A stretch of DNA of 27,320 bases from a virus, in the IMG/VR virus record IMGVR_UViG_3300021142_001958, positions 1-27,320 of that record. One strand, written 5' to 3'. The translations under genes were made by a program, and so were the position numbers. Under the pieces are notes generated by a model, which was not told where the DNA came from, ran no database searches, and worked only from the letters and a program-made list of their open reading frames with translations. Shown piece after piece: positions 4,294 through 27,320 of the stretch; the stretch's first letter is position 1, and each line of letters begins with the position of its first letter.

Positions 4294-5028
4294 ATGAATA
4301 CTTATTCAAGAAAAAATCCACCAAAAGGATTTTACGTTTATTTCTATCTCCGCGACAAAGATTCCAAAACGGCCACAAAAGGAACTCCATATTACGTGGG
4401 TAAGGGGAGCACAGATAGAGCTTGGGAACCTCATGGAAAAATACCAGTACCGAAAAATAATTCGCTTATATTAATACTACATTCAGAATTATCAGAAACT
4501 TATTCATTTATATTAGAAAGATATTATATAAAATGGTTTGGTAGAAAAGATAATAGAACTGGGATTTTATTAAACAGAACCGATGGCGGTGAAGGAGTAT
4601 CAGGTTTAATTCATTCACAAGAATCCATCCAAAAAAGAATAAACTCGAATACAGGAAAAAAACGTTCGAAACAAGCAAAATTAAACATAAGCAATAGTAG
4701 AAAAGGAGTATCATCGTCGGTTAAAAAAGGAGACGTTAGACTTCAATCTACCAAAGAAAAAATATCCAATAAATGTTTAGAAAGAGTAAAAAACAAATCA
4801 CATAATCTATTAAAACAAAAAGATGGAAGTTCTGTAGCATCTAACTTATCCAAAATAGGACAACACAACTGGCAGAAAACAAAAAATTTGGTTAAATGTT
4901 ACGATAAACAAGGCAATTATATGTTAATAACCACGGACGAATATAGGACACAAACAGGAGATATGCGATTATGGGAATATGTATCCGTGGCTAGTAACGA
5001 AGGAAAACGTAGGAAAAATAATTTATAA
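4294..5028 (+). CDS. Free-standing GIY-YIG homing endonuclease (HEG1)
   Basis: A 244-residue GIY-YIG nuclease. The degenerate GIY motif is FYVYFYL (13-19), the YIG motif is YYVGKG (33-38), and the catalytic-type glutamate is E75 in [14 protein letters not shown]. Residues about 106-140 ([10 protein letters not shown]... [16 protein letters not shown]) are NUMOD3-like DNA-binding repeats. It sits on the opposite strand to the replication genes, between 44 and the dsbA-like gene, and its stop abuts the dsbA-like stop at 5028/5029, a typical intergenic insertion of a mobile endonuclease. About 60% of residues match HEG2 over the nuclease domain by eye. Both HEGs share a late promoter and a hairpin leader. 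It probably cuts related phages lacking the insertion. Confidence 0.88.
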
Positions 5029-16479: not shown

Positions 16480-16508
16480 TTGCTAAATAAAAGTATTTAT
16501 ATTATACT
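16480..16508 (+). promoter_or_regulatory. Sigma70-like promoter for the DNA modification operon
   Basis: TTGCTA (16480-16485), 17 bases, TATACT (16503-16508), on the plus strand 29 bases upstream of the dioxygenase ATG at 16537. TATACT is also the -10 proposed for gene 44. It overlaps the oppositely directed late promoter at 16494-16501, so only one can be occupied at a time. Confidence 0.6.
16494..16501 (-). promoter_or_regulatory. T4-type late promoter for the virion protein gene
   Basis: TATTTATA on the plus strand, that is TATAAATA read on the minus strand, ending 21 bases before the ATG at 16472. Exact match to the T4 late consensus, with a structural gene downstream. Confidence 0.7.
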
Positions 16509-16536: not shown

Positions 16537-17886
16537 ATGGTTAGGACGATAGTTGCTGAAAAAACTTTGGATTGCGAACACCTTCTAGGTCAGTTTTTGG
16601 ATGACCGTCATTTCGATTACGTTGTGGATGAAGATTGTAATTTTTTTGCACCTCCTATTTGTGGTTTAGAGGAAAAAAGTACGTGTACAAATAAAGACTG
16701 TTCTTCCTGCCCAAAGGGAGTGGATGAAGATACTGTTATTTTTATTTTAAGGAAGAATTTCTTTACTGAAGACGAACAATTGAATGCTCTAGAGGGATTG
16801 AAGGGCGCTGCGTCTATATCTTTTAATAGAGGAATTGCTGCAGGGCCAAGAGAAGAAACGGACTCTGATAGAGAATGGGTAACTGATCTTCAATTAGACG
16901 TGTTAGATTATTTTTCAAATCCTTCTAAAAATCTTTTTGACGAAGATTCTGTCAGTGAAATTTATGATCGTTATACCAATGTTAAGGATGCTCCATCAAC
17001 CAGAGGTTATGTTTGGTTAACTTCTAAAATGAAAGCTGATGAGTTTGAATTTGATACTTGGGCTAACGATGTGAAAAATATGCCACAAGAACAACAGATA
17101 GAAGAAGCTGAAAAGATCAAACAGAAATATATTTCAAATACAAATTATGCAGGTGCAGTTCATTCAGGAGTTGCTGGTTGGTATGATAGATATCCTAGAA
17201 TTCCTTATGGCAGAGCAACTTCATACACTGAAAAGAATCCAGAAAAGTTTTCTTTAGCGTATCCTTTTTTACAAAAACTATCTAAAGCGTTTTCTACTAT
17301 TTTACCAAGGAGATGGGCTTTCCAGAAATCTTGTATTGAAAGAATTGATCCAGAATTCCACGTTCCAGATACTGTTTTTACCACAATTACTGTAAATAAA
17401 ACATTTAGAACTGCTGCTCATAGAGATGCAGGCGATTTACATCAAGGATTTTCTAATCTTTCTGTACTTACTAATGGTAAGAAATATTCTGGCGGCATGT
17501 TGGTTCTGCCAGAATTTAGAGTAGCTGTTAATGTTCGCCCAGGTGATTTATTATTGATTAATAATCACGGAGGCATTCACGGAAATACTCCTATTGTTCT
17601 TGAAGAAGACGGTGCAGAAAGATATTCTGTTGTCTGTTATTTCAGAGAGAAAATGTTAGAGTTGGGCGCTAAGATTTATGAAGACGCCAGATATAAATTT
17701 GTAGAATTCAGAAGGAATAATAAAGATCATCCAGAATGGAGATCTATGTGGAATGGAACTTCTCCTGGTATGTGGAAGTCTAAGGAATGGTATGATTTTC
17801 TTGAAAATGAATTGGGTAAAGATATGGTAGCCAAATATCATCCTGAAAGTATTGAAAGTACGATATCAATGGATGAGTTCTTTTAA
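16537..17886 (+). CDS. TET/JBP-like 2-oxoglutarate/Fe(II) DNA base dioxygenase
   Basis: A 449-residue protein. The start is set at 16537 (MVRTIVAEK), where AGGTGA is well placed; the frame opens at 16480 but the extra residues overlap the promoter. The 2OG-dioxygenase core has the iron ligands H295-x-D297 in AAHRDAGD, the distal histidine H348 in GGIHGNTP and the 2OG-binding arginine R362 in ERYSVV. Between them is NLSVLTNGKKYSGGMLVLPEF, the pattern of the TET/JBP family. These enzymes hydroxylate 5-methylcytosine or thymine in DNA. A cysteine cluster (C42, C50, C55, C58) may bind metal. First gene of the modification operon; the next ATG overlaps its stop (TAATG). No DNA methyltransferase is in the window, so the base oxidised is open. 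Confidence 0.85.
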   Translation: MVRTIVAEKTLDCEHLLGQFLDDRHFDYVVDEDCNFFAPPICGLEEKSTCTNKDCSSCPKGVDEDTVIFILRKNFFTEDEQLNALEGLKGAASISFNRGIAAGPREETDSDREWVTDLQLDVLDYFSNPSKNLFDEDSVSEIYDRYTNVKDAPSTRGYVWLTSKMKADEFEFDTWANDVKNMPQEQQIEEAEKIKQKYISNTNYAGAVHSGVAGWYDRYPRIPYGRATSYTEKNPEKFSLAYPFLQKLSKAFSTILPRRWAFQKSCIERIDPEFHVPDTVFTTITVNKTFRTAAHRDAGDLHQGFSNLSVLTNGKKYSGGMLVLPEFRVAVNVRPGDLLLINNHGGIHGNTPIVLEEDGAERYSVVCYFREKMLELGAKIYEDARYKFVEFRRNNKDHPEWRSMWNGTSPGMWKSKEWYDFLENELGKDMVAKYHPESIESTISMDEFF

Positions 17887-18569
17887 TGTGTGGAGTTATT
17901 GGGGCAATACTCAAATCTCCTTCTGACAAAGAATTTTCTTTGGTGCGTAACGCATTCCACGAATCCAAAATTCGTGGAATGCACGCAACAGGATTATCTT
18001 ATGTTAAAAATGGACAATTGATTACGATTAAAAAATCTGTATCTGCTGATAAATTCGATGAGTTAAATCATCTTGCTGAATTTGTGAATGAAGACGGTAA
18101 CTTATATCTAATAGGACATTGTAGATATTCAACTTCCGATTTAGTTTACAATCAACCTATATCCAATGGAAATCTATCCGTGGTTCATAATGGGGTTATT
18201 AGCCAAGAACTATTTGATAATTGGAAATATTTTTATGGATATGATTGTTCTACTAAAAACGATAGTGAATTACTTCTTCATACATTAGAAGATCAAAAAG
18301 ACGTATTTGAAATATGGAAAGATTCTTCAATGGGCGTTTGTACGTTGAATGTCAATAAAGAATTGATTTTCTATAGAAATGGAAAAAGGCCAATATATTT
18401 TACAGAATTTGATTCGGGAATATTAATAGGATCAACAAAAGATATTCTAATTAGAAGCGGATTACAGAAAATTATTGAAGCGGAACCGTTTGTATATTAT
18501 ACTATACGCGATTTGAATCTGTTATACAATTATCCGCAGGACAGAGGAATAGATTTACAAAATGGATAA
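17886..18569 (+). CDS. Class II glutamine amidotransferase (glutaminase domain)
   Basis: A 227-residue Ntn-hydrolase glutaminase. It begins MCGVIGAI, exposing the nucleophile cysteine C2 after methionine removal. Further family marks are RGMHATGLSY (30-39), GHCRYST (77-83) and VVHNGVI (99-105). The protein is only the glutaminase half; there is no synthetase or phosphoribosyltransferase domain as in AsnB, GlmS or PurF. It would liberate ammonia from glutamine for a partner, plausibly the amidoligase two genes on. Overlaps both neighbours (by 1 and 8 bases). Confidence 0.88.
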   Translation: MCGVIGAILKSPSDKEFSLVRNAFHESKIRGMHATGLSYVKNGQLITIKKSVSADKFDELNHLAEFVNEDGNLYLIGHCRYSTSDLVYNQPISNGNLSVVHNGVISQELFDNWKYFYGYDCSTKNDSELLLHTLEDQKDVFEIWKDSSMGVCTLNVNKELIFYRNGKRPIYFTEFDSGILIGSTKDILIRSGLQKIIEAEPFVYYTIRDLNLLYNYPQDRGIDLQNG

Positions 18570-19350
18570 ATTATTAATATACATTCCTACTCTTGGTAGA
18601 GAAGGTAGACAAATTACGTTAAAATCGATTCCAGAAGAATGGAAAGATCGTGTATTTTTGGTATGCCCTTCCGCAGAAAATCACGAATGGGATAACAGAA
18701 TAGACGTTCCAGAATATTGTATAGGAAGTGTTGCTAAAACAAGGCAATTTATTCTTGATTCTAGTGAATCTAAATTCGTTGGTATGTTGGATGACGATCT
18801 ATCGTTTTATGAAAGAGATTCTATTATTTTAACTAAGACAACTAGATTAGAATCAATAGAAAAATATTTTTCTTTGATGGAGAGTTGGTTGATGAGCGGT
18901 GATGTGTATTGTACACAAGCTAACAGTTTTATGTCGCATAATAATCCAGAAGAATATTATTATGGAAAGCCATCCCATTCACATTTTGTTAATAGGGATT
19001 ATTTGAAATCTAAAGATATCCGCTTCGATGCTTTAAGTTATTTTGAAGATTTTCACGTACCTTTATCAGTACTTGAATGTGGTAAAAGGTTGAGAATTTC
19101 TGGTAAATACATAGCTAAAGAAAAAGAAGCAAATGCTTCTGGTGGATGTTCAATAAACAGAACAGCAGATAATAATAAAACTGCTATGTATAAACTTCAA
19201 GAACTGCATCCAAAGTATGTGACTTTAAAAGAAGAAGAAGGTGCTACTAATCAAAATTTGGTAGTTGATTTAAAGATGCGTATATCTTTTAAAAAAGCAT
19301 ATGATGATAACGTAATAAAAAATAGTGGTATTTTAGATGATTTCATGTGA
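18562..19350 (+). CDS. TET-associated-type glycosyltransferase (GT-A fold)
   Basis: A 262-residue protein. Opening YIPTLGREGRQITLKSIP is the nucleotide-sugar-binding start of a GT-A fold, and MLDDDLSF at 75-82 is the DxD-type metal motif (D77-D79). FEDFHVPLSVLECGKR follows the acceptor half. Phage TET/JBP genes are known to sit next to a dedicated family of such enzymes (TAGT), predicted or shown to glycosylate hydroxymethylated bases. The family placement is from gene context and overall pattern. It overlaps the glutaminase gene by 8 bases and the amidoligase by 14. Confidence 0.72.
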   Translation: MDKLLIYIPTLGREGRQITLKSIPEEWKDRVFLVCPSAENHEWDNRIDVPEYCIGSVAKTRQFILDSSESKFVGMLDDDLSFYERDSIILTKTTRLESIEKYFSLMESWLMSGDVYCTQANSFMSHNNPEEYYYGKPSHSHFVNRDYLKSKDIRFDALSYFEDFHVPLSVLECGKRLRISGKYIAKEKEANASGGCSINRTADNNKTAMYKLQELHPKYVTLKEEEGATNQNLVVDLKMRISFKKAYDDNVIKNSGILDDFM

Positions 19351-20302
19351 TAATTGGTCTTACGGTGTGGAATTAGAATACGGTAATTCATATAGATTTT
19401 GTGATTTACCAGAAGGTGCAAAATGGAATGACAAAGATAATACTTGTGTAAGTTCAACAGGGATAGCAAACGATCCAGACGGTAAGTTGTATAAGTATGG
19501 TGGAGAAATTAATACTAGACCAACGTATAGTATTGAAGAACAAATAGAACATATTTCGGAAATTAATCGTACTTTATGTCCACATCCCTTAGTTAATTAT
19601 AGAAGTAATCTTCACATTCACGTTAGAGTTCCTGGATTAAAGGATGATTTAGAAGCTTGTAAGAAATTACTACGCTACATTGACAAGTATCAACAACAAG
19701 CTTTTGATATTGTCGAAACTATTCCTGTACCAGATAAAAATGTTCTTACTCCAGAAGTATATGAATGGGAATTGAAGAGAATGAAAAGACGTATGAAATC
19801 TCATCAATATAAATTACCCGCAAACAGAGTAAACGCTATGCTCAATGCTACGACTACTCAAGAGTTTTTTGAAGAACATGCTCCTTTAACTGCAAAAGGT
19901 AGAATGTGGTACTTTAGTCCAAGGGCAGGAATTAACCTTAGACAAATGTGGGAAGAAACTAATACTATTGAATTTAGACACTTTCCAGGTACTCTGGATA
20001 TGGTAGAGATGGAGTCTTGTATTAGATGGTGTAAGAACTTTTTGTATCATGCACTATTCACTGATGATGTTAGTCCGCACGAATTTTATATGGAAGAGAC
20101 TTATGTTTTCCCTAAATTTCAACCATATAGATTTGAATGTGAACAAATATATCAATGGACTAATTTCGACACTAATAAAAAATCGGATATCACAAAAAGA
20201 TTGAATGCTTTACGATTATACGTTAATATAGATGATACAGAGAACGTAGATGCTAAGGTAGTATATCCATATATGTTAAGATTAAAGGCTCAAGGACTAT
20301 GA
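19337..20302 (+). CDS. Amidoligase (glutamine-synthetase-fold COOH-NH2 ligase)
   Basis: A 321-residue protein of the putative amidoligase family (PF12224-like). The ordered motifs are GVELEYG (10-16), GGEINTRP (55-62), HIHVRV (93-98), and TIEFRHFPGTLD (210-221). These give the glutamate/histidine metal ligands and arginine expected for ATP-dependent amide bond formation. It would ligate an amino acid or amine to a carboxylate. Iyer and Aravind-type analyses predict these enzymes in phage base-modification clusters. Its stop overlaps the next gene by 4 bases. Confidence 0.8.
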   Translation: MISCDNWSYGVELEYGNSYRFCDLPEGAKWNDKDNTCVSSTGIANDPDGKLYKYGGEINTRPTYSIEEQIEHISEINRTLCPHPLVNYRSNLHIHVRVPGLKDDLEACKKLLRYIDKYQQQAFDIVETIPVPDKNVLTPEVYEWELKRMKRRMKSHQYKLPANRVNAMLNATTTQEFFEEHAPLTAKGRMWYFSPRAGINLRQMWEETNTIEFRHFPGTLDMVEMESCIRWCKNFLYHALFTDDVSPHEFYMEETYVFPKFQPYRFECEQIYQWTNFDTNKKSDITKRLNALRLYVNIDDTENVDAKVVYPYMLRLKAQGL

Positions 20303-20742
20303 ACGTTCTTTTCGTATGTCATGGTAATATCAATCGAAGTGCAGCTGGAGAAATCATTCTCAAACAAATTAAACCTGATTGGAATATTAAATCAGCTGCA
20401 TTGAAAGATACGAAAGGTAATGAAATTACTGCTAAGAAAATGCGAGAAGCATTAGGCGAACTTGGATATCCTAGCGAAGGTATTAGATCGACTCCAATTT
20501 CTGATGAATTGGTTGATTGGGCAGATGTTATTTTCTATATGGACGATTCTAACAGAGATAAGTTAGAGGATAAGTTTGGTACTACAATATTTTCTAAATC
20601 TGTTAGACTCAGTAGTTTAATTGGCATTCCTAAAATACCAGATCCTAATTATGCAAAAGGTAATGAGTTGCATAAAATGGTTATTAAAATGTTAGAAGAA
20701 TCTTTAAAAGTTTTTATAAATGGATTACAGCAACAGGAATAA
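20299..20742 (+). CDS. Low-molecular-weight tyrosine phosphatase-like protein
   Basis: A 147-residue LMW-PTP fold protein. The P-loop is VLFVCHGNINRSAAGE with nucleophile C7 and R13 (CxxxxxR(S)). The general-acid aspartate is D115 in IPDPNY. Both catalytic elements are intact, so it should be an active phosphatase or arsenate-reductase-like enzyme. Its place between the amidoligase (4-base overlap) and the pyrophosphorylase-like gene (23-base overlap) suggests a job in the modification pathway, perhaps removing a phosphate from a nucleotide or a protein. No such role is established that I can recall. Confidence 0.85.
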   Translation: MNVLFVCHGNINRSAAGEIILKQIKPDWNIKSAALKDTKGNEITAKKMREALGELGYPSEGIRSTPISDELVDWADVIFYMDDSNRDKLEDKFGTTIFSKSVRLSSLIGIPKIPDPNYAKGNELHKMVIKMLEESLKVFINGLQQQE

Positions 20743-21739
20743 CAGAAGAGAACTATTCATTCGTTGGTATGCTTGGTCTTTAAATTATAAAGATTGCGAT
20801 CCAGCTGTTTGGTTAGCGAATTATCTTAATGAAAGATATGAACACAACATAGAACAGAAATATTGGTTTGCTTGGTTATATGGTAACACTTACCAATTAC
20901 CCACTGCTTGGGTATTGATGAACGAATTTCCTGATTACGAACTAGCTACTTTTGATAGACTTGATTGGTGGAATTCCAATAACTATAAGAGACTTCGTTA
21001 TCAAGTTGATATGAAATACGAAAAAGGCAAACTACCAGAAAAGTTTGTTTGTTATAAGTCTATTATTGGTGATAAATTACAAACAACTTTTTTTAATAAT
21101 TTATTATTGGATAATGAAAAATCTAGTTTCGATAATATTTGGAATTATACATTAACTAATTTTCATAGGTTTGGCAGGTATTCTGTTTGGTTTTATTTAC
21201 AACAATTGTATTCAACAGTCAATCTTCCTATCAGCCCAACGTCATTAATGTTGAAAGATTATTCTGGCTCTAAAAGTCATAGAAATGGATTGTTGTTGGC
21301 ATTAGGTCAAGACGAGAAGTATAATGAACGTTTAACATCTGCTGAATATGAATATCTTGAATGTATTGCCCAAGATATATTACAAGAAATGACGGATAGA
21401 TTTCCTAACTTGAAGTTTGATATAAATGCGTTTACAATGGAAACTGTTCTGTGTTCTTTTAAGAAAATCTTTAGACCTACAAATGGAAGATATCTTGGCT
21501 ATTATTTGGATAGGCAATCAGAAGAAATTATTCAACTAGAAAAAGATTCTTGGGATGGAATTGATTGGAACGTTTTATGGCAAGCTAGGAATGAATGCTT
21601 AGATAATCGTTTAAGTAGTAAAACAGTAATAAATGCTGGTAAATATCCAGAATTTATTAATTCAAATAAAATATCAAGGATGGATTGGTTGTTTGATGAT
21701 GAAGAAGAATTGAAAACTGGATTTGAGGCGTTTTTATGA
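20720..21739 (+). CDS. Alpha-glutamyl/putrescinyl thymine pyrophosphorylase-like DNA modification protein
   Basis: A 339-residue protein. Recognisable family blocks are EQKYWFAWLYGNTYQLPTAW, EFPDYELATFDRLDWWN, RLRYQVDMKYEKGKLPE, HRFGRYSVWFYLQQL and DYSGSKSHRNGLLLALG. This pattern belongs to the aGPT-PPlase group of phage proteins, thought to replace the pyrophosphate on a 5-hydroxymethylpyrimidine in DNA with an amine such as glutamate or putrescine. The gene overlaps the phosphatase gene and ends 4 bases into the kinase gene. The fold is mainly helical with no P-loop. The clade cannot be fixed by eye. Confidence 0.75.
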   Translation: MDYSNRNNRRELFIRWYAWSLNYKDCDPAVWLANYLNERYEHNIEQKYWFAWLYGNTYQLPTAWVLMNEFPDYELATFDRLDWWNSNNYKRLRYQVDMKYEKGKLPEKFVCYKSIIGDKLQTTFFNNLLLDNEKSSFDNIWNYTLTNFHRFGRYSVWFYLQQLYSTVNLPISPTSLMLKDYSGSKSHRNGLLLALGQDEKYNERLTSAEYEYLECIAQDILQEMTDRFPNLKFDINAFTMETVLCSFKKIFRPTNGRYLGYYLDRQSEEIIQLEKDSWDGIDWNVLWQARNECLDNRLSSKTVINAGKYPEFINSNKISRMDWLFDDEEELKTGFEAFL

Positions 21740-22275
21740 GAAAAATTATTTGTGTTATTGGTGAACCTGGAGTTGGTAAGACTACCCTTTTTCGTAATTT
21801 TATGGATGCATATTCTTGGGAAAATCAAGAACCAGTTAAGCTTGTAAATACAAAATATTCCAAAGATTTGGATCTTCATATAATTGGAAAATATGAAGAT
21901 GGAGAAGTTTTTGCAGGTACTGACAGACTTAGTATGGCAGTAATGCCAGAAGCAATAAAATTTGTTGAAAGCACTACATCTAATGTTATGTTTGAAGGTG
22001 ATAGACTTACGAGCACTAAGTTTTTTGATTTCTTATTGACTCTTCCAGAAACTGTAGTTAGTATAATTGTTTTAACTGCATCGCAAGAAACTTTAAACGA
22101 AAGATATGAGCAAAGAGGAAGCGAACAATCAGACACCTTCTTAAAAGGAAGGAAAACGAAGATTAATAATATTCGTGGTAATTTTGATTATATGGAATAC
22201 ATTCACGTTTATGAAAATAAAACACCAGAAGATATGTATACAGTAATCAATAAAATTAAATCTTTACTAAATTAG
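21736..22275 (+). CDS. P-loop kinase, hydroxymethylpyrimidine DNA kinase-like
   Basis: A 179-residue P-loop kinase. Walker A GEPGVGKTT is at 9-17. A TDRLSMAVMPEAIKF segment precedes FEGDRLTS, and a lid arginine segment ERYEQRGSEQ follows. The DRLSMAV...EGDRL pattern is shared with phage kinases that phosphorylate hydroxymethyluracil in DNA for hypermodification. Alternatively it is an ordinary nucleoside monophosphate kinase. Last gene of the operon; the pmoC late promoter follows 11 bases after the stop. Confidence 0.75.
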   Translation: MRKIICVIGEPGVGKTTLFRNFMDAYSWENQEPVKLVNTKYSKDLDLHIIGKYEDGEVFAGTDRLSMAVMPEAIKFVESTTSNVMFEGDRLTSTKFFDFLLTLPETVVSIIVLTASQETLNERYEQRGSEQSDTFLKGRKTKINNIRGNFDYMEYIHVYENKTPEDMYTVINKIKSLLN

Positions 22276-22285
22276 TAGGATATAG

Positions 22286-22293
22286 TATAAATA
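22286..22293 (+). promoter_or_regulatory. T4-type late promoter for pmoC
   Basis: Exact TATAAATA on the plus strand, 69 bases upstream of the pmoC ATG. It would place pmoC under gp55-dependent late transcription. AAGAGG at 22341-22346 is the pmoC ribosome site (8 bases from the ATG). Confidence 0.75.
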
Positions 22294-22354: not shown

Positions 22355-23122
22355 ATGGCTAGTATTGTTAATTCTGCTGCGGATACCGCAGAAGTGCCAC
22401 TTCTCAATAAGTCGTGGCTTGCTGGAGCCTTTAGTATCTATTTCGTATTCTATATTTGGGTACGTTGGTATGAAGGTGTTTTTGGTTGGGCTGCTGGACT
22501 TGATTCCTTTGCTCCTGAGTTTGAAACCTATTGGATGAATTTTCTTTACGCGGAGATTGTTCTTGAGGTAACAATTGCCTCAATCCTTTGGGGTTTTATT
22601 TGGAAAACTAGGGATCGTGATTTTTCTGCCCTGACTCCACGTGTCGAACTGCAACGTAATATGACGCATTTAATTTGGTTATTTGCTTATGCAAATGCTA
22701 TTTATTGGGGCGCTTCATATTTCACTGAACAGGACGGTACTTGGCATCAAACCATTGTTCGTGATACTGACTTTACACCAAGTCATATCATTGAATTCTA
22801 CCTCTCTTATCCTATCTACATTATTACTGGATTTGGAGCATTTCTTTATGCTAAAACTAGACTTCCTTTCTTTTCAGAAGGATTGTCTCTTCCTTATCTT
22901 GTAACTGTAGTTGGTCCGTTTATGATCCTTCCAAACGTTGGTCTTAATGAATGGGGACACACCTTCTGGTTTATGGAGGAACTTTTTGTGGCTCCTCTCC
23001 ACCTAGGTTTTGTTGTATTTGGATGGTTAGCACTTGCAATCGGAGGTGTTTTATTACAAGTATTTGACTCCTTTTCAAGACTCATTGGTGAGGAATTATT
23101 ATTTGTAATGAACGATAAGTAA
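22355..23122 (+). CDS. pmoC: Particulate methane monooxygenase subunit C (PmoC)
   Basis: A 255-residue integral membrane protein, the C subunit of pMMO, near the full family length. Several membrane segments are visible (e.g. 22-37, 62-83, 104-123, 145-165, 178-195, 217-236). The copper-C ligands D127, H131 and H144 (EQDGTWHQ ... TPSHIIE) and the copper-D ligands N198, H202 and H216 (GLNEWGHTFW ... APLH) are all present. Sequence such as DSFAPEFETYWMNFLY and HQTIVRDTDFTPSH is PmoC rather than AmoC. The last ~15 residues (IGEELLFVMNDK) differ from the usual ...EAVDxGLIxK ending. G+C in one sampled 60-base line is 43%, against 22% in a line of the neighbouring kinase gene, suggesting host acquisition. 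Preceded by a late promoter, followed by a terminator. Confidence 0.97.
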   Translation: MASIVNSAADTAEVPLLNKSWLAGAFSIYFVFYIWVRWYEGVFGWAAGLDSFAPEFETYWMNFLYAEIVLEVTIASILWGFIWKTRDRDFSALTPRVELQRNMTHLIWLFAYANAIYWGASYFTEQDGTWHQTIVRDTDFTPSHIIEFYLSYPIYIITGFGAFLYAKTRLPFFSEGLSLPYLVTVVGPFMILPNVGLNEWGHTFWFMEELFVAPLHLGFVVFGWLALAIGGVLLQVFDSFSRLIGEELLFVMNDK

Positions 23123-23136
23123 AAACTTATCAAAAC

Positions 23137-23166
23137 AAAAAAGGGAGGAAAAACCTCCCTTTTTTT
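23137..23166. terminator. Bidirectional terminator between pmoC and HEG2
   Basis: AAAAAAGGGAGG (23137-23148), loop AAAAA, CCTCCCTTTTTT (23154-23165): a 12-bp perfect stem with T-run on the plus strand. The minus-strand read likewise ends in T-rich sequence. It lies between the convergent pmoC and HEG2 and would terminate both; HEG2's stop codon overlaps its edge. Confidence 0.85.
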
Positions 23167-23779
23167 ATATTTTATGTTTACAATTATCAAAATGATATCT
23201 TGTCATATTCCCACCTCCACCAGATATTCCACAATGAGGACAAGTAATATTTTTTATATTTCTAGTTTTATATAATCGTCCTTCTTTATATTCTGGTTTC
23301 GAGTCTTCTGGATATATATGATATGATTTTTCATCATCGTGATACCACCGTTTACCTATACAATGTTTTCCTCCAGTATCTTTAAATTTTTGTATAGTAT
23401 CTTCAGTATATACTCCTACTTTTCCTTTGTTCCAAGGAAGTTGTCCTGTTTTCTTGCCCTTATTCCAAGGTGTGTATGGTTTTCCTTTATTCCACGGTGT
23501 TCCACCAGATAGACCTTCACCACCATCTGTCATATTTCTTAGAATGCCTGTGTTGTTATCTTTTCTACCAAACCATCTAATGTAGTATCGTTCTTGAATG
23601 AACGCTTGACATTCGGTTAGGTTCTGTGATATAATAATGTTTCTGTTTAGGTCTTTTGGAACTGGAATATTTCCATGTTTCTGAAATCTTCTTTTTCCAG
23701 AACCTTTACCGACATAATATGGAGTGAAATCTTCTCTTAAATAGAGATAGACATAAAAGTGTGACTGATAAATACTCAT
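23165..23779 (-). CDS. GIY-YIG homing endonuclease with C-terminal zinc finger (HEG2)
   Basis: A 204-residue GIY-YIG nuclease starting at the ATG at 23779, which has AGGAG eight bases upstream; the frame extends to 23821 but without homology. Motifs are YVYLYL, YYVGKG (21-26), catalytic-type E63 in [14 protein letters not shown], and [15 protein letters not shown]. Next come NUMOD3-like repeats of the type PWNKGK (three copies). A C-terminal zinc finger, [12 protein letters not shown]...HFDNC, completes it. The nuclease domain is close to HEG1. It lies convergent with pmoC just past the pmoC stop, and a second pmoC 3' end lies 0.7 kb beyond its promoter, suggesting it homes into the pmoC region. 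Confidence 0.9.
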
Positions 23780-23783
23780 GCTG

Positions 23784-23834
23784 ATACTCCTGTTTAGTAT
23801 TAGAACCCATAGATACGCCAATATCGTGATGGGT
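23784..23834 (-). promoter_or_regulatory. Two-hairpin leader of HEG2
   Basis: Read on the minus strand: outer stem ACCCAT/ATGGGT (23834-23829 with 23810-23805), inner GATA/TATC (23825-23822 with 23815-23812), then a second stem ATACT/AGTAT (23800-23796 with 23788-23784). The AGGAG ribosome site (23791-23787) lies partly in this stem. Same plan as the HEG1 leader, with compensated changes. Likely delays translation. Confidence 0.6.
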
Positions 23835-24767: not shown

Positions 24768-25784
24768 ATGTCAAAAAAATACGATTTAATCGTCTATATT
24801 GGACGTTTTCAACCATTTCATAACGCTCATCATGAAATCCTTTGTAGGGCAAAAGCACTTGCGGAAAAAGTAGTGCTCATTATAGGCTCTTCCCAGCAGC
24901 CTAGAACATATAAAAACCCATTTACTGATTATGAACGTAAGATGCTCATGATTGGTGATTGGGAAGTATCTTCTTATTGTGTCAAAGATTGCATGTATAA
25001 TGATCAAGCATGGGCAGTCAGTATACAAGAAGCTGTCGCAAAAGAAGTTTACAATGCGTTTTACTTGCAAGATAATGTTAAAATTGGTATTATCGGACAC
25101 GAAAAAGACCAATCAAGTTTTTATCTTAAAATGTTTCCTCAATGGGATCACATTGATGTAGAATGCATCGAACCGTTACACTCTACTAATATCAGAGATT
25201 TATATTTCCGTAATGATGTTAATATGAATTTTATTAAAGGTGTAGTACCTACAAAAGTTTTTACTTTTTTGAACGAATTCAAAGACAGTGAATCATATAA
25301 ACAAATAGTCAAAGAACGAGAATTTATTGAAGATTATAAGAAACAATACGCTTCATTTCCTTATCCTCCTACATTTGTAACTACTGATGCAGTTGTTATC
25401 CAATCAGGACATGTTTTGATGATCAAACGTAAATCAGAACCTGGTAAAGGATTATGGGCATTACCCGGAGGATTTCTGAACGCTGATACAGACAAAAGTA
25501 TGATCGATTGTTGTATTAGAGAATTGAAGGAGGAAACTGGTATTAAAGTGCCCGTTCCTGTATTGAAAGGAAACATAACAAATTCTAAAGTTTTTGATGC
25601 TATTGGGCGTAGTGCTAGAGGCAGAACAATAACCCATGCATTTAAGATAGTTTTGCCTGATGGAGAACTTCCAAAAGTGAAAGGTTCAGACGATGCGGAA
25701 AAAGCTAAATGGGTTCCTATTTGGGAATTACAATCTGAAGATTGTTTTGAGGATCATTATGATATCATTTCTTATTTCGTTTGA
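24768..25784 (+). CDS. nadM: Bifunctional NMN adenylyltransferase/Nudix hydrolase
   Basis: A 338-residue two-domain protein. The N-terminal nucleotidyltransferase domain has the phosphate loop YIGRFQPFHNAHHE (HxGH-like) and, later, HSTNIRDLY (the ISSTxIR-like motif). It joins NMN to ATP to give NAD. The C-terminal Nudix domain has GLWALPGGFLN followed by RELKEETGI; the core REXXEE is intact, but the first glutamate of the Nudix box is not in the usual place (spacing longer by two). Similar fusions occur in Vibrio phage KVP40-type viruses. Next in the cluster are an RlaP-like gene and nadV. Confidence 0.92.
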   Translation: MSKKYDLIVYIGRFQPFHNAHHEILCRAKALAEKVVLIIGSSQQPRTYKNPFTDYERKMLMIGDWEVSSYCVKDCMYNDQAWAVSIQEAVAKEVYNAFYLQDNVKIGIIGHEKDQSSFYLKMFPQWDHIDVECIEPLHSTNIRDLYFRNDVNMNFIKGVVPTKVFTFLNEFKDSESYKQIVKEREFIEDYKKQYASFPYPPTFVTTDAVVIQSGHVLMIKRKSEPGKGLWALPGGFLNADTDKSMIDCCIRELKEETGIKVPVPVLKGNITNSKVFDAIGRSARGRTITHAFKIVLPDGELPKVKGSDDAEKAKWVPIWELQSEDCFEDHYDIISYFV

Positions 25785-25792
25785 GGTTCATT

Positions 25793-26674
25793 ATGAGTTC
25801 TTATATTAAACAATTACAAGATCAATTAAATACGCCTAAATGGTTAATTGATAATATTCTCTTTGAAGGATTGACTGGATCTGTATGTTATGGAGTTTCT
25901 AACGATACTTCTGATATGGATATCGTAGGTTTCTGTATTCCTCCAAAAGAATTAATATTTCCACATTTAGCTGGAGAAATATTTGGGTTTGGTACTCAAC
26001 TTAAACGGTTTGACGTTTTCCAACAGCACCGTATTGAAAAAGATAGAAAGACATATGATTTTACCATTTATTCTATCGTAAAGTTTTTCCAACTTGTTAT
26101 GGAAAATAATCCTAATATGATTGATGCTTTATTTTTACCAAGAAATTGTGTATTGCATTCAACGCATATCTATGAACATTTAAGAGATAATAGAAAAATA
26201 TTCCTCCATAAAGGTTCTTGGTTTAAATTTCGTGGATATGCATATTCGCAATTATCTAAGATTAAAAGTAAGTCAAATGCTTCTAATCCTAAAAGAGCAG
26301 AAACAATAGAAAAATTTGGATACGATACTAAATTTGCATATCATATAGTTAGACTTCTTTTAGAAGTTGAACAGATTATGGCAGAAGGAGATTTGGATCT
26401 TCAAAGAAATTCAGAAATTCTGAAAAGTATTAGAAAAGGAGAATGGAAATTAACTGATCTGGAGTCTTGGTTTGATAGTAAAGAAAAGGCTTTGGAAGGT
26501 TTATATACAACGTCTAAGTTACCAGAAAGACCTAGAGAAAATAAAATTAAGGCGCTTCTCATGGAATGTCTCGAAATGCATTACCAAGATTTGAGTTCAA
26601 TCATTAAGGTCGCTCCAGAAGTTAATTCAATAGTTCATGATTTAGAATTATTGATTGAAAAATATAAGGTGTAA
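25793..26674 (+). CDS. RlaP-like nucleotidyltransferase (DNA polymerase beta superfamily)
   Basis: A 293-residue protein from the ATG at 25793; GAGG lies six bases upstream. A TTG 12 bases earlier is possible. The MNT-fold signature is GLTGSVCYGVSNDTSDMDIVGF, the G-S-x-x-Y-G...S-D-x-D nucleotidyltransferase motif (PF10127-like). Members of this family are linked with RNA ligase and predicted to act in RNA repair. Why it lies between nadM and nadV is unclear. Confidence 0.72.
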   Translation: MSSYIKQLQDQLNTPKWLIDNILFEGLTGSVCYGVSNDTSDMDIVGFCIPPKELIFPHLAGEIFGFGTQLKRFDVFQQHRIEKDRKTYDFTIYSIVKFFQLVMENNPNMIDALFLPRNCVLHSTHIYEHLRDNRKIFLHKGSWFKFRGYAYSQLSKIKSKSNASNPKRAETIEKFGYDTKFAYHIVRLLLEVEQIMAEGDLDLQRNSEILKSIRKGEWKLTDLESWFDSKEKALEGLYTTSKLPERPRENKIKALLMECLEMHYQDLSSIIKVAPEVNSIVHDLELLIEKYKV

Positions 26675-26675
26675 T

Positions 26676-27320
26676 ATGTATAAATCAATCATACTTAATT
26701 CAGATTCGTACAAATACAGTATGCCATTTCAATATCCCGAAGGGACGGAATATGTATATTCATATATCGAAAGCAGGGGTGGTCTTTGGGATGAAACTGT
26801 CTTTTTTGGTTTACAAGCTTTCATTAAGGAATATCTACTTGAACCTATAACAAAAGAAGATATTGATATTGCAGAAGAAATTATCACCCAACACGGAGAA
26901 CCTTTTTATAGAGAAGGTTGGGAATATATTCTTAAAGAATATGATGGATATCTTCCTGTAGTAATTAAAGCAGTACCTGAGGGAACAGTAGTTCCTGTTA
27001 AAAATGTATTGGCTACGATAGAAAATACAGATCCAAAATGTTGGTGGTTAACTACGTTTTTGGAAACGTCTCTTCTTAGGGCAATTTGGTATCCAACCAC
27101 TGTAGCTACAAATAGTTGGATGAGTAAGAAAATTATTAAGTATTGGATGAATAAAAATGGTGGATGTAATAGCGTGGATTTCAAGCTTCACGATTTTGGT
27201 GCTAGAGGTGTTTCTAGTCTGGAAAGTTCTGCAATTGGTGGGGCCGCGCACCTCATCAATTTTATGGGTACTGATAACATTAATGGTCTTCTTTTTGCAA
27301 GGGATTATTATAACGCTGGG
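26676..27320 (+). CDS. nadV: Nicotinamide phosphoribosyltransferase (partial, truncated by window end)
   Basis: At least 215 residues, still open at the window end. Starts with MYKSIILNSDSYKYSMPFQYPEG, followed by VYSYIESRGG and later DFGARGVSS (phosphate/substrate binding), as in NAMPT/NadV. It makes NMN from nicotinamide and PRPP; the upstream nadM product converts NMN to NAD. AAGGTG precedes the ATG. One base separates it from the RlaP-like gene. Confidence 0.93.
   Translation, partial: MYKSIILNSDSYKYSMPFQYPEGTEYVYSYIESRGGLWDETVFFGLQAFIKEYLLEPITKEDIDIAEEIITQHGEPFYREGWEYILKEYDGYLPVVIKAVPEGTVVPVKNVLATIENTDPKCWWLTTFLETSLLRAIWYPTTVATNSWMSKKIIKYWMNKNGGCNSVDFKLHDFGARGVSSLESSAIGGAAHLINFMGTDNINGLLFARDYYNAG

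What the first reader, a model, noticed from the sequence alone, without database searches (positions are those of the whole stretch)
16537..22275. Seven-gene operon for a predicted complex DNA base hypermodification
Seven overlapping genes read as one pathway: TET/JBP dioxygenase, class II glutaminase, TET-associated-type glycosyltransferase, amidoligase, LMW phosphatase, aGPT-pyrophosphorylase-like protein and P-loop kinase. Motifs are intact in all. The family logic (known from bioinformatic and some biochemical work) is hydroxylate a base, phosphorylate, substitute an amine, then ligate amino acids and/or sugar. The full set with the phosphatase and both amidoligase and glutaminase may be a new combination. 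The final base cannot be predicted.
Basis: partly seen in the sequence, partly recalled or inferred. Interest (0 to 1): 0.88.

Follow-up and report, generated by a model that had tools for sequence, protein, structure and literature searches.

The report
Phage DNA-thymine hypermodification gene cassette
A phage that probably infects methane-eating bacteria carries a tightly packed seven-gene kit, also found in dozens of other uncultured phages, that most likely rebuilds thymine in its own DNA into a large, amide-bearing base that should hide the DNA from bacterial defences.

Summary
The seven genes are real, overlap and have intact catalytic motifs; every family call passes Pfam's curated cut-off. 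The cassette recurs: 30 other viral contigs hold all six genes apart from the sugar-transferase slot, and two of these hold all seven. Independent modelling supports the two weakest calls. The amidoligase folds like glutamate-cysteine ligase and glutamine synthetase. The "pyrophosphorylase-like" protein matches only one solved fold with confidence, phage PaMx11 5-phosphomethyl-deoxyuridine glycinyltransferase. No cytosine-C5 methyltransferase occurs in 27 searched records from relatives and comparators, including four complete TET-phage genomes. A more distant TET phage, Melnitz, does carry one, beside its TET gene. Thymine is therefore the likeliest target.

My best mechanism: TET makes 5-hydroxymethyluracil, the kinase phosphorylates it, glutaminase plus transferase replace the phosphate with an amine, and the amidoligase acylates that amine. 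The phosphatase acts with the amidoligase, and a glycosyltransferase optionally adds sugar. Comparative evidence is a set of module swaps: glutaminase for flavin lyase, amidoligase+phosphatase for acetyltransferase. The product and the phosphatase's substrate remain unshown. Verdict: new variant of thymidine hypermodification, interesting but not categorically new.

The parts
16537..17886 (+). TET/JBP 2-oxoglutarate/Fe(II) dioxygenase; predicted to oxidise the methyl group of T in DNA to 5-hydroxymethyluracil
   Evidence: Pfam Tet_JBP 1e-22; H295-x-D297, H348, R362 at least 97% conserved in 62 sequences; an in-frame TTG start at 16480 also exists
17886..18569 (+). stand-alone class II (Ntn) glutaminase domain; predicted ammonia donor
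   Evidence: Pfam GATase_6 3e-10; C2, R80, N102-G103, D126 conserved in 49 sequences
18562..19350 (+). TET-associated glycosyltransferase (optional slot, replaced or absent in relatives)
   Evidence: Pfam TAGT 6e-8, phrog_842 6e-29; the slot holds TAGT, an unrelated predicted glycosyltransferase, or nothing; at least 4 changes on the ADDT tree
19337..20302 (+). ATP-dependent amidoligase of the glutamate-cysteine ligase / glutamine synthetase fold
   Evidence: Pfam Amidoligase_2 3e-6; AlphaFold2 pLDDT 92; best PDB matches YbdK, GshA, glutamine synthetase, Z about 9-10
20299..20742 (+). low-molecular-weight phosphatase, always paired with the main amidoligase subfamily
   Evidence: Pfam LMWPc 4e-16; CX5R and DP motifs conserved in 39 sequences; present in 35 of 37 amidoligase loci and in none without it
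20720..21739 (+). ADDT (amino acid:DNA transferase); predicted to displace the phosphate of 5-phosphomethyluracil in DNA with an amine
   Evidence: Pfam ADDT 1e-17; AlphaFold2 pLDDT 93; only confident PDB match is PaMx11 gp46 5-PmdU glycinyltransferase, prob 1.00, TM 0.53-0.64
21736..22275 (+). P-loop kinase; predicted 5-hydroxymethyluracil DNA kinase
   Evidence: Pfam Ploopntkinase3 4e-10; same PHROG (800) as phage Simon's kinase, which itself weakly matches HMUDK; G14-K15 conserved in 55 sequences

Best explanation
The operon is a post-replicative thymine-hypermodification pathway. (1) TET oxidises T in DNA to 5-hydroxymethyluracil. (2) The P-loop kinase phosphorylates it to 5-phosphomethyluracil. 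(3) The glutaminase frees ammonia from glutamine and the ADDT enzyme uses it to displace the phosphate, giving 5-aminomethyluracil. (4) The amidoligase, using ATP, joins a carboxylate (probably an amino acid, in the manner of glutamate-cysteine ligase) to that amine as an amide. (5) The phosphatase acts on what the amidoligase makes or uses, for example by removing a phosphate carried in with the ligated group. (6) The TAGT glycosyltransferase optionally adds a sugar, either to the finished base or to leftover 5-hydroxymethyluracil. The presumed purpose is to block host restriction and other DNA-targeting defences. Rough step confidence: DNA hypermodification 0.93; thymine as target 0.75; kinase 0.8; ADDT acts on 5-phosphomethyluracil 0.85; ammonia rather than an amino acid as its nucleophile 0.5; amidoligase acylates an amine 0.55; phosphatase role 0.3; sugar as optional terminal step 0.6. 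No step is shown biochemically.
For: Thymine: no C5-methyltransferase in 27 records searched, including the complete genomes of Cr30, DLP6, C48C1 and S-CBWM1, while Melnitz, a more distant TET phage, has one next to its TET gene; ThyX is present in several relatives; ADDT fold equals PaMx11 5-PmdU glycinyltransferase. Amine logic: in 45 GAT-containing ADDT loci the glutaminase is always accompanied by an amidoligase or a GNAT, and the only two ADDT loci with an amidoligase but no GAT are cut at the contig end. ADDTs next to glutaminase are 45-86% identical to the window's, the rest 26-35%. GNAT replaces amidoligase+phosphatase at least twice on the ADDT tree. Phage Simon has a flavin-dependent lyase (7e-62 to PDB 8z2o) directly before amidoligase-phosphatase-5hmdU kinase, where PaMx11 has flavin lyase-acetyltransferase-kinase. 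So {glutaminase or flavin lyase} x {amidoligase or acetyltransferase} has all four combinations filled, as expected if both makers yield the same amine. PMC6449724 describes 5hmdU, kinase, then alkylamine transferase as the shared route.
Against: That 5-aminomethyluracil is what flavin-lyase phages make rests on my recollection of Lee et al. 2022 and on the title of Wen et al. 2024 (cited in PMC11946847); neither paper is held. The separate clade of glutaminase-linked ADDTs has weak support (77/44, 78% of bootstraps). Glutaminase and a divergent amidoligase also sit together in the 7-deazaguanine cluster of Vibrio phage 2.275.O, and PMC10580990 reports the pair in OM43 phages, which suits direct feeding of ammonia to the amidoligase. 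Simon rests on one unverified record. The kinase family also occurs with a C5-methyltransferase in Melnitz. The window is a 27 kb fragment, so a methyltransferase elsewhere in its own genome is not excluded.
Confidence: 0.5

Rival explanations
1. Amino-acid-amide model: ADDT attaches an amino acid to 5-phosphomethyluracil through its amine, as PaMx11 gp46 does with glycine; the glutaminase then feeds ammonia to the amidoligase, which amidates the amino acid's carboxylate, giving a thymine bearing an amino-acid amide.
For: ADDT's solved homologue is a glycinyltransferase. Glutaminase and amidoligase are neighbours, apart from the sugar-transferase slot, in the cassette and co-occur in Vibrio phage 2.275.O and OM43 phages. 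Glutamine synthetase, a fold relative, uses ammonia.
Against: Glutaminase occurs without any amidoligase in ten loci, where a GNAT that cannot use ammonia takes its place, and amidoligase+phosphatase occur without a detected glutaminase in Simon.
Confidence: 0.25
2. Cytosine model: the TET enzyme acts on 5-methylcytosine made by a phage or host C5-methyltransferase, and the same later steps decorate 5-hydroxymethylcytosine.
For: Melnitz phage carries C5-methyltransferase, TET and the related kinase together; TAGT enzymes in T-even phages act on hydroxymethylcytosine sugars (PMC13390438; phrog_842).
Against: No C5-methyltransferase in 27 records of relatives and comparators including four complete TET-phage genomes; ADDT matches a 5-PmdU enzyme and Simon's copy of the amidoligase+phosphatase pair lies in a 5hmdU operon.
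Confidence: 0.15
3. Mixed locus: only TET, glycosyltransferase, ADDT and kinase modify DNA, while glutaminase, amidoligase and phosphatase modify a cell-wall or peptide target, as has been suggested for amidoligase and GATase of phage phiEco32.
For: That suggestion is quoted for other phages in PMC10580990; phosphatases of this family often act on proteins.
Against: These three genes lie between the DNA-modification genes in nearly every carrier with overlapping frames, and amidoligase+phosphatase also sit inside an unrelated 5hmdU operon in Simon.
Confidence: 0.08

Closest known systems
Pseudomonas phage PaMx11 thymidine-hypermodification operon (gp46-gp51)
   Same: ADDT fold (5-phosphomethyl-dU glycinyltransferase, PDB 8z2m/8z2n), 5hmdU-type kinase, acylating enzyme after the amine maker
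   Different: hmU comes from a thymidylate-synthase-family enzyme instead of TET; flavin lyase and GNAT instead of glutaminase and amidoligase+phosphatase; no glycosyltransferase in the operon
phage Simon (PQ683277) 5hmdU operon
   Same: amidoligase (41% identical) followed directly by the phosphatase, with ADDT, kinase and HMUDK helical protein
   Different: no TET and no detected glutaminase; flavin lyase and thymidylate-synthase-family gene instead
Caulobacter phage Cr30 TET cluster
   Same: TET (47% identical), ADDT, TAGT-like protein and the same kinase (41% identical) in a T4-like phage
   Different: no glutaminase and no amidoligase or phosphatase homologue in the cluster; a myo-inositol-1-phosphate synthase homologue lies between ADDT and kinase
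Phage M6, ViI and phiW-14 5hmdU pathways
   Same: shared logic of 5hmdU, DNA kinase, then amine transfer (PMC6449724); ADDT relatives in Viunavirus-type phages
   Different: hydroxymethyl group made at nucleotide level; different downstream enzymes
Synechococcus phage S-B43 CmoX/CmoY
   Same: ATP-dependent amide ligase acting on a phage DNA base (PMC12783734)
   Different: asparagine-synthetase-type ligase acting on carboxymethylcytosine, unrelated enzymes

Membership tests
Thymidine hypermodification pathway (5hmdU - kinase - ADDT) | ADDT amino-acid/alkylamine transferase | tested here: met
   Pfam PF18724 1e-17; fold match to 5-PmdU glycinyltransferase
Thymidine hypermodification pathway (5hmdU - kinase - ADDT) | 5hmdU DNA kinase | tested here: inconclusive
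   P-loop kinase PF18751, shares phrog_800 with Simon's HMUDK-like kinase; window protein does not itself match PF18748
Thymidine hypermodification pathway (5hmdU - kinase - ADDT) | hmU made at nucleotide level by a thymidylate-synthase-family enzyme | tested here: not met
   PF00303 absent from all searched relatives except Cr30; TET is present instead. Filed as a variant, not a plain member
Thymidine hypermodification pathway (5hmdU - kinase - ADDT) | modified thymidine in virion DNA | not testable with these tools
   needs LC-MS
TET/JBP dioxygenases | double-stranded beta-helix domain with HxD...H iron ligands | tested here: met
TET 5-methylcytosine hypermodification systems | accompanying C5-cytosine methyltransferase | tested here: not met
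   0 of 27 records of relatives and comparators, positive in Melnitz; the window itself is only a fragment
Amidoligase (GCS/GS-fold COOH-NH2 ligases) | fold and metal/ATP-site Glu, His, Arg residues | tested here: met
Amidoligase (GCS/GS-fold COOH-NH2 ligases) | ATP-dependent amide bond formation | not testable with these tools
   needs assay
Low-molecular-weight phosphatases | CX5R(S) loop and DP acid | tested here: met
   C7-x5-R13-S14, D115-P116 conserved; PDB relatives
Class II glutaminases | N-terminal Cys nucleophile, R, N-G, D | tested here: met
Base J pathway (JBP plus J-glycosyltransferase) | glucosylation of hmU by a JGT-type enzyme | not testable with these tools
   a TAGT-family enzyme is present; its acceptor is unknown

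The most novel reading that the evidence does not exclude
A new kind of hypermodified thymine in which ammonia, not an amino acid, is placed on 5-phosphomethyluracil by a glutaminase-ADDT pair and the resulting aminomethyl group is then linked by an ATP-dependent ligase to an amino acid (plus sugar in some phages): a ligase-built isopeptide-like DNA base made from TET-oxidised thymine.
Probability: 0.35. Interest if true: 0.8.

Novelty: new variant of a known kind. Interest (0 to 1): 0.6.

Why it matters
It joins two pathways usually treated apart, TET oxidation on DNA and the kinase/ADDT thymidine route, and predicts testable new DNA bases with an amide bond formed on the base. The module swaps give a simple rule for reading such operons: source of hmU, source of amine, acylating enzyme, optional sugar. 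The cassette is common in uncultured phages. Here it sits next to pmoC in a phage that probably infects a methanotroph, so it could shape how such phages escape restriction. The enzymes could also be tools for attaching groups to thymine in DNA.

Tried and rejected
Megablast of 24 kb of the window against cultured phages: no match. Related-locus scans with the ADDT, Simon amidoligase and glutaminase single sequences found one, none and none, so neighbourhoods rest on the TET and amidoligase scans. Glutaminase profile found none in Simon, Cr30, DLP6, C48C1, S-CBWM1, but it also missed the divergent one in Vibrio phage 2.275.O that a looser scan sees, so absence in Simon is not proven. A strict one-clade claim for glutaminase-linked ADDTs was dropped for weak support. 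The three independent pairs for amidoligase and phosphatase are too few for significance. An arginine-phosphatase role for the phosphatase was considered because YwlE is a relative, but the loop has Ile where, as I recall, YwlE has Thr. Iyer 2013, Lee 2022, Burke 2021 and Wen 2024 are not held, so prior prediction of this exact operon cannot be excluded. Linkage of the cassette to pmoC in general was rejected: 0 of 80 other pmoC viral loci hold it within the sequence fetched, up to 10 kb each side. TATAAATA counts are no higher than chance.
Full report
OBSERVATION. The window is a 27,320-base virus record with T4-type genes; my reading of the ORFs gives a family B polymerase fragment, clamp and loader, gp46/gp47-type proteins, a UvsW-like helicase and a tail tube protein. 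The seven named genes lie at 16537-22275 on the + strand and overlap by 1, 8, 14, 4, 23 and 4 bases; pmoC follows after 79 bases. Each protein passes its Pfam gathering score. PHROGs and NCBIfam agree where they have models. Catalytic residues are at least 97% conserved in 39-62 relatives per family, 4 for TAGT.

THE CASSETTE IS WIDESPREAD. A scan with the TET protein gave 34 viral loci and a scan with the amidoligase 37. After removing duplicates, 30 contigs besides the window hold TET, glutaminase, amidoligase, phosphatase, ADDT and kinase. The window, L004 and L036 hold all seven with TAGT; L019 has the same order but its contig ends before the kinase. Between glutaminase and amidoligase lies an optional glycosyltransferase slot: TAGT, an unrelated protein I read as a GT-B glycosyltransferase (no Pfam match; no PDB match), or nothing. 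This slot needs at least four changes on the ADDT tree.

OTHER MODULES AROUND THE SAME CORE. TET, ADDT and kinase recur with different middle genes: GNAT acetyltransferase after glutaminase (L009, L011, L014, L021 group); myo-inositol-1-phosphate synthase (L005, L006, L007, L034 and Caulobacter phage Cr30); a protein I read as a PLP enzyme (L003); TET with only a TAGT (L016, L040).

FOLDS. The amidoligase model (pLDDT 92) matches YbdK, glutamate-cysteine ligase and glutamine synthetase (Z 9-10, 176-234 residues for most rows). The ADDT model (pLDDT 93) has one confident match among 350,542 PDB chains: PaMx11 gp46, 5-phosphomethyl-2'-deoxyuridine glycinyltransferase (8z2n, 8z2m; probability 1.00, TM 0.53-0.64). 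A sequence-profile search alone does not find it.

WHICH BASE. No PF00145 C5-methyltransferase was found in 18 records and nine more, including the complete genomes of Cr30, DLP6, C48C1 and S-CBWM1 and contigs up to 173 kb. The search does find one in Methylophilales phage Melnitz, where it lies directly before a distant TET and a kinase of the same family. PF00303 (thymidylate synthase and pyrimidine hydroxymethylases) appears only in Cr30, whereas ThyX is found in 7 of 11 records, Melnitz among them. With the ADDT fold match, thymine oxidised on the DNA by TET is the best reading. The window's own genome is incomplete, so this is inference from relatives.

KEY COMPARATOR: PHAGE SIMON. An unverified sewage phage record (L041) holds amidoligase (41% identical) followed at once by the phosphatase, then a 5hmdU-kinase-like protein, HMUDK_hel (3.8e-42), Nmad5 and a thymidylate-synthase-family gene, with an ADDT upstream. 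It has no TET homologue near these genes and no detected glutaminase. The gene directly before the amidoligase is homologous to the solved PaMx11-type flavin-dependent lyase (8z2o, 7.3e-62). In PaMx11 itself the order is ADDT, flavin enzyme, GNAT, kinase, HMUDK_hel, thymidylate-synthase family. Amidoligase+phosphatase and GNAT thus occupy the same slot.

WHY I FAVOUR AN AMINE INTERMEDIATE. In 54 ADDT loci with upstream sequence, 45 have glutaminase and all 45 also have an amidoligase or GNAT; of nine without glutaminase only two have an amidoligase, and both are cut at the contig end. At 95% clustering this is 25 glutaminase clusters (19 with amidoligase, 6 with GNAT only) against 7 with neither glutaminase nor amidoligase. 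ADDTs beside glutaminase are 45-86% identical to the window's; the others 26-35%. GNAT versus amidoligase switched at least twice on the tree. So glutaminase tracks ADDT, not the amidoligase. Glutaminase and flavin lyase look like alternative makers of one amine, and GNAT and amidoligase like alternative acylators of it. I recall from Lee et al. 2022 (not held) that flavin lyases give 5-aminomethyl-dU and that acetyltransferases act on it; the title of Wen et al. [quoted passage not shown] In Vibrio phage 2.275.O a divergent amidoligase lies beside QueF, QueC, a DpdA-like protein (my reading of gp468) and a divergent glutaminase. QueF would also give an aminomethyl base (preQ1), though the glutaminase there fits the rival model as well.

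THE PHOSPHATASE. It is present in 35 of 37 amidoligase loci and in none without amidoligase; the two exceptions have a divergent amidoligase and a GNAT, and Simon keeps the pair. Its substrate therefore depends on the amidoligase reaction. A phosphorylated ligated group is my guess, not a result.

HOST AND CONTEXT. The next gene is a stand-alone pmoC (AmoC family 1.8e-119), closest to gammaproteobacterial Methylococcaceae (up to 88%), so the host is probably a methanotroph, as for the pmoC-phages of Chen et al. 2020 (PMC7674155). The cassette is not a general feature of pmoC phages (0 of 80 loci). A TATAAATA sequence lies before pmoC and another before the tail gene but none directly before the cassette on its strand, so pmoC may be expressed separately; the count is at chance level.

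CONCLUSION. It is a TET-initiated variant of thymidine hypermodification with an amidoligase-phosphatase acylation module. Shown here: gene content, order, conservation, folds and linkage. Inferred: target base, order of steps, amine intermediate, ligated group, phosphatase role and biological purpose.

Noticed in passing
22355-23122 (+): Stand-alone pmoC directly after the cassette, nearest to Methylococcaceae pmoC (up to 88%); a TATAAATA sequence at 22286 lies 69 bases before it. No other pmoC viral locus of 80 has the cassette nearby.
   Followed up: partly
24768-27320 (+): Apparent NAD salvage set: bifunctional NMN adenylyltransferase/Nudix (24768-25784) and nicotinamide phosphoribosyltransferase start (26655-, runs off the end), with an RlaP-family nucleotidyltransferase between.
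   Followed up: no
L005:13009-14229, L006, L007, L034, L037 (phage Cr30): A myo-inositol-1-phosphate synthase homologue and a small conserved protein sit between ADDT and kinase in another TET-ADDT-kinase cluster, hinting at an inositol-bearing base.
   Followed up: partly
L042:8048-15074 (Vibrio phage 2.275.O): A divergent amidoligase and class II glutaminase lie in a 7-deazaguanine DNA-modification cluster with QueF, QueC and GTP cyclohydrolase.
   Followed up: partly
L242:457-4537 (phage Melnitz-3): C5-methyltransferase, TET/JBP protein, a 427-aa protein with no Pfam match and a related kinase in a row: a probable cytosine counterpart of the system.
   Followed up: partly
L039:11932-15379 (phage C48C1): TET followed by a protein of unknown family and a UDP-galactopyranose mutase, suggesting galactofuranose on the base.
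   Followed up: no
GenBank KU682439, KF301602, MG450654; NC_025422; phrog_800: Phage TET proteins are annotated as 'SNF2 DNA repair protein', and the kinase as 'terminase small subunit'; both look like misannotations.
   Followed up: no
G006:45500-45946 and DLP6 49878-50366: Divergent ThyX-like matches (about 3e-10) covering only part of the model, in one cassette carrier and one TET phage.
   Followed up: no
4294-5028 (+) and 23165-23821 (-): Two proteins with a similar N-terminus ([17 protein letters not shown]) that read like GIY-YIG homing endonucleases; neither matches Pfam.
   Followed up: no
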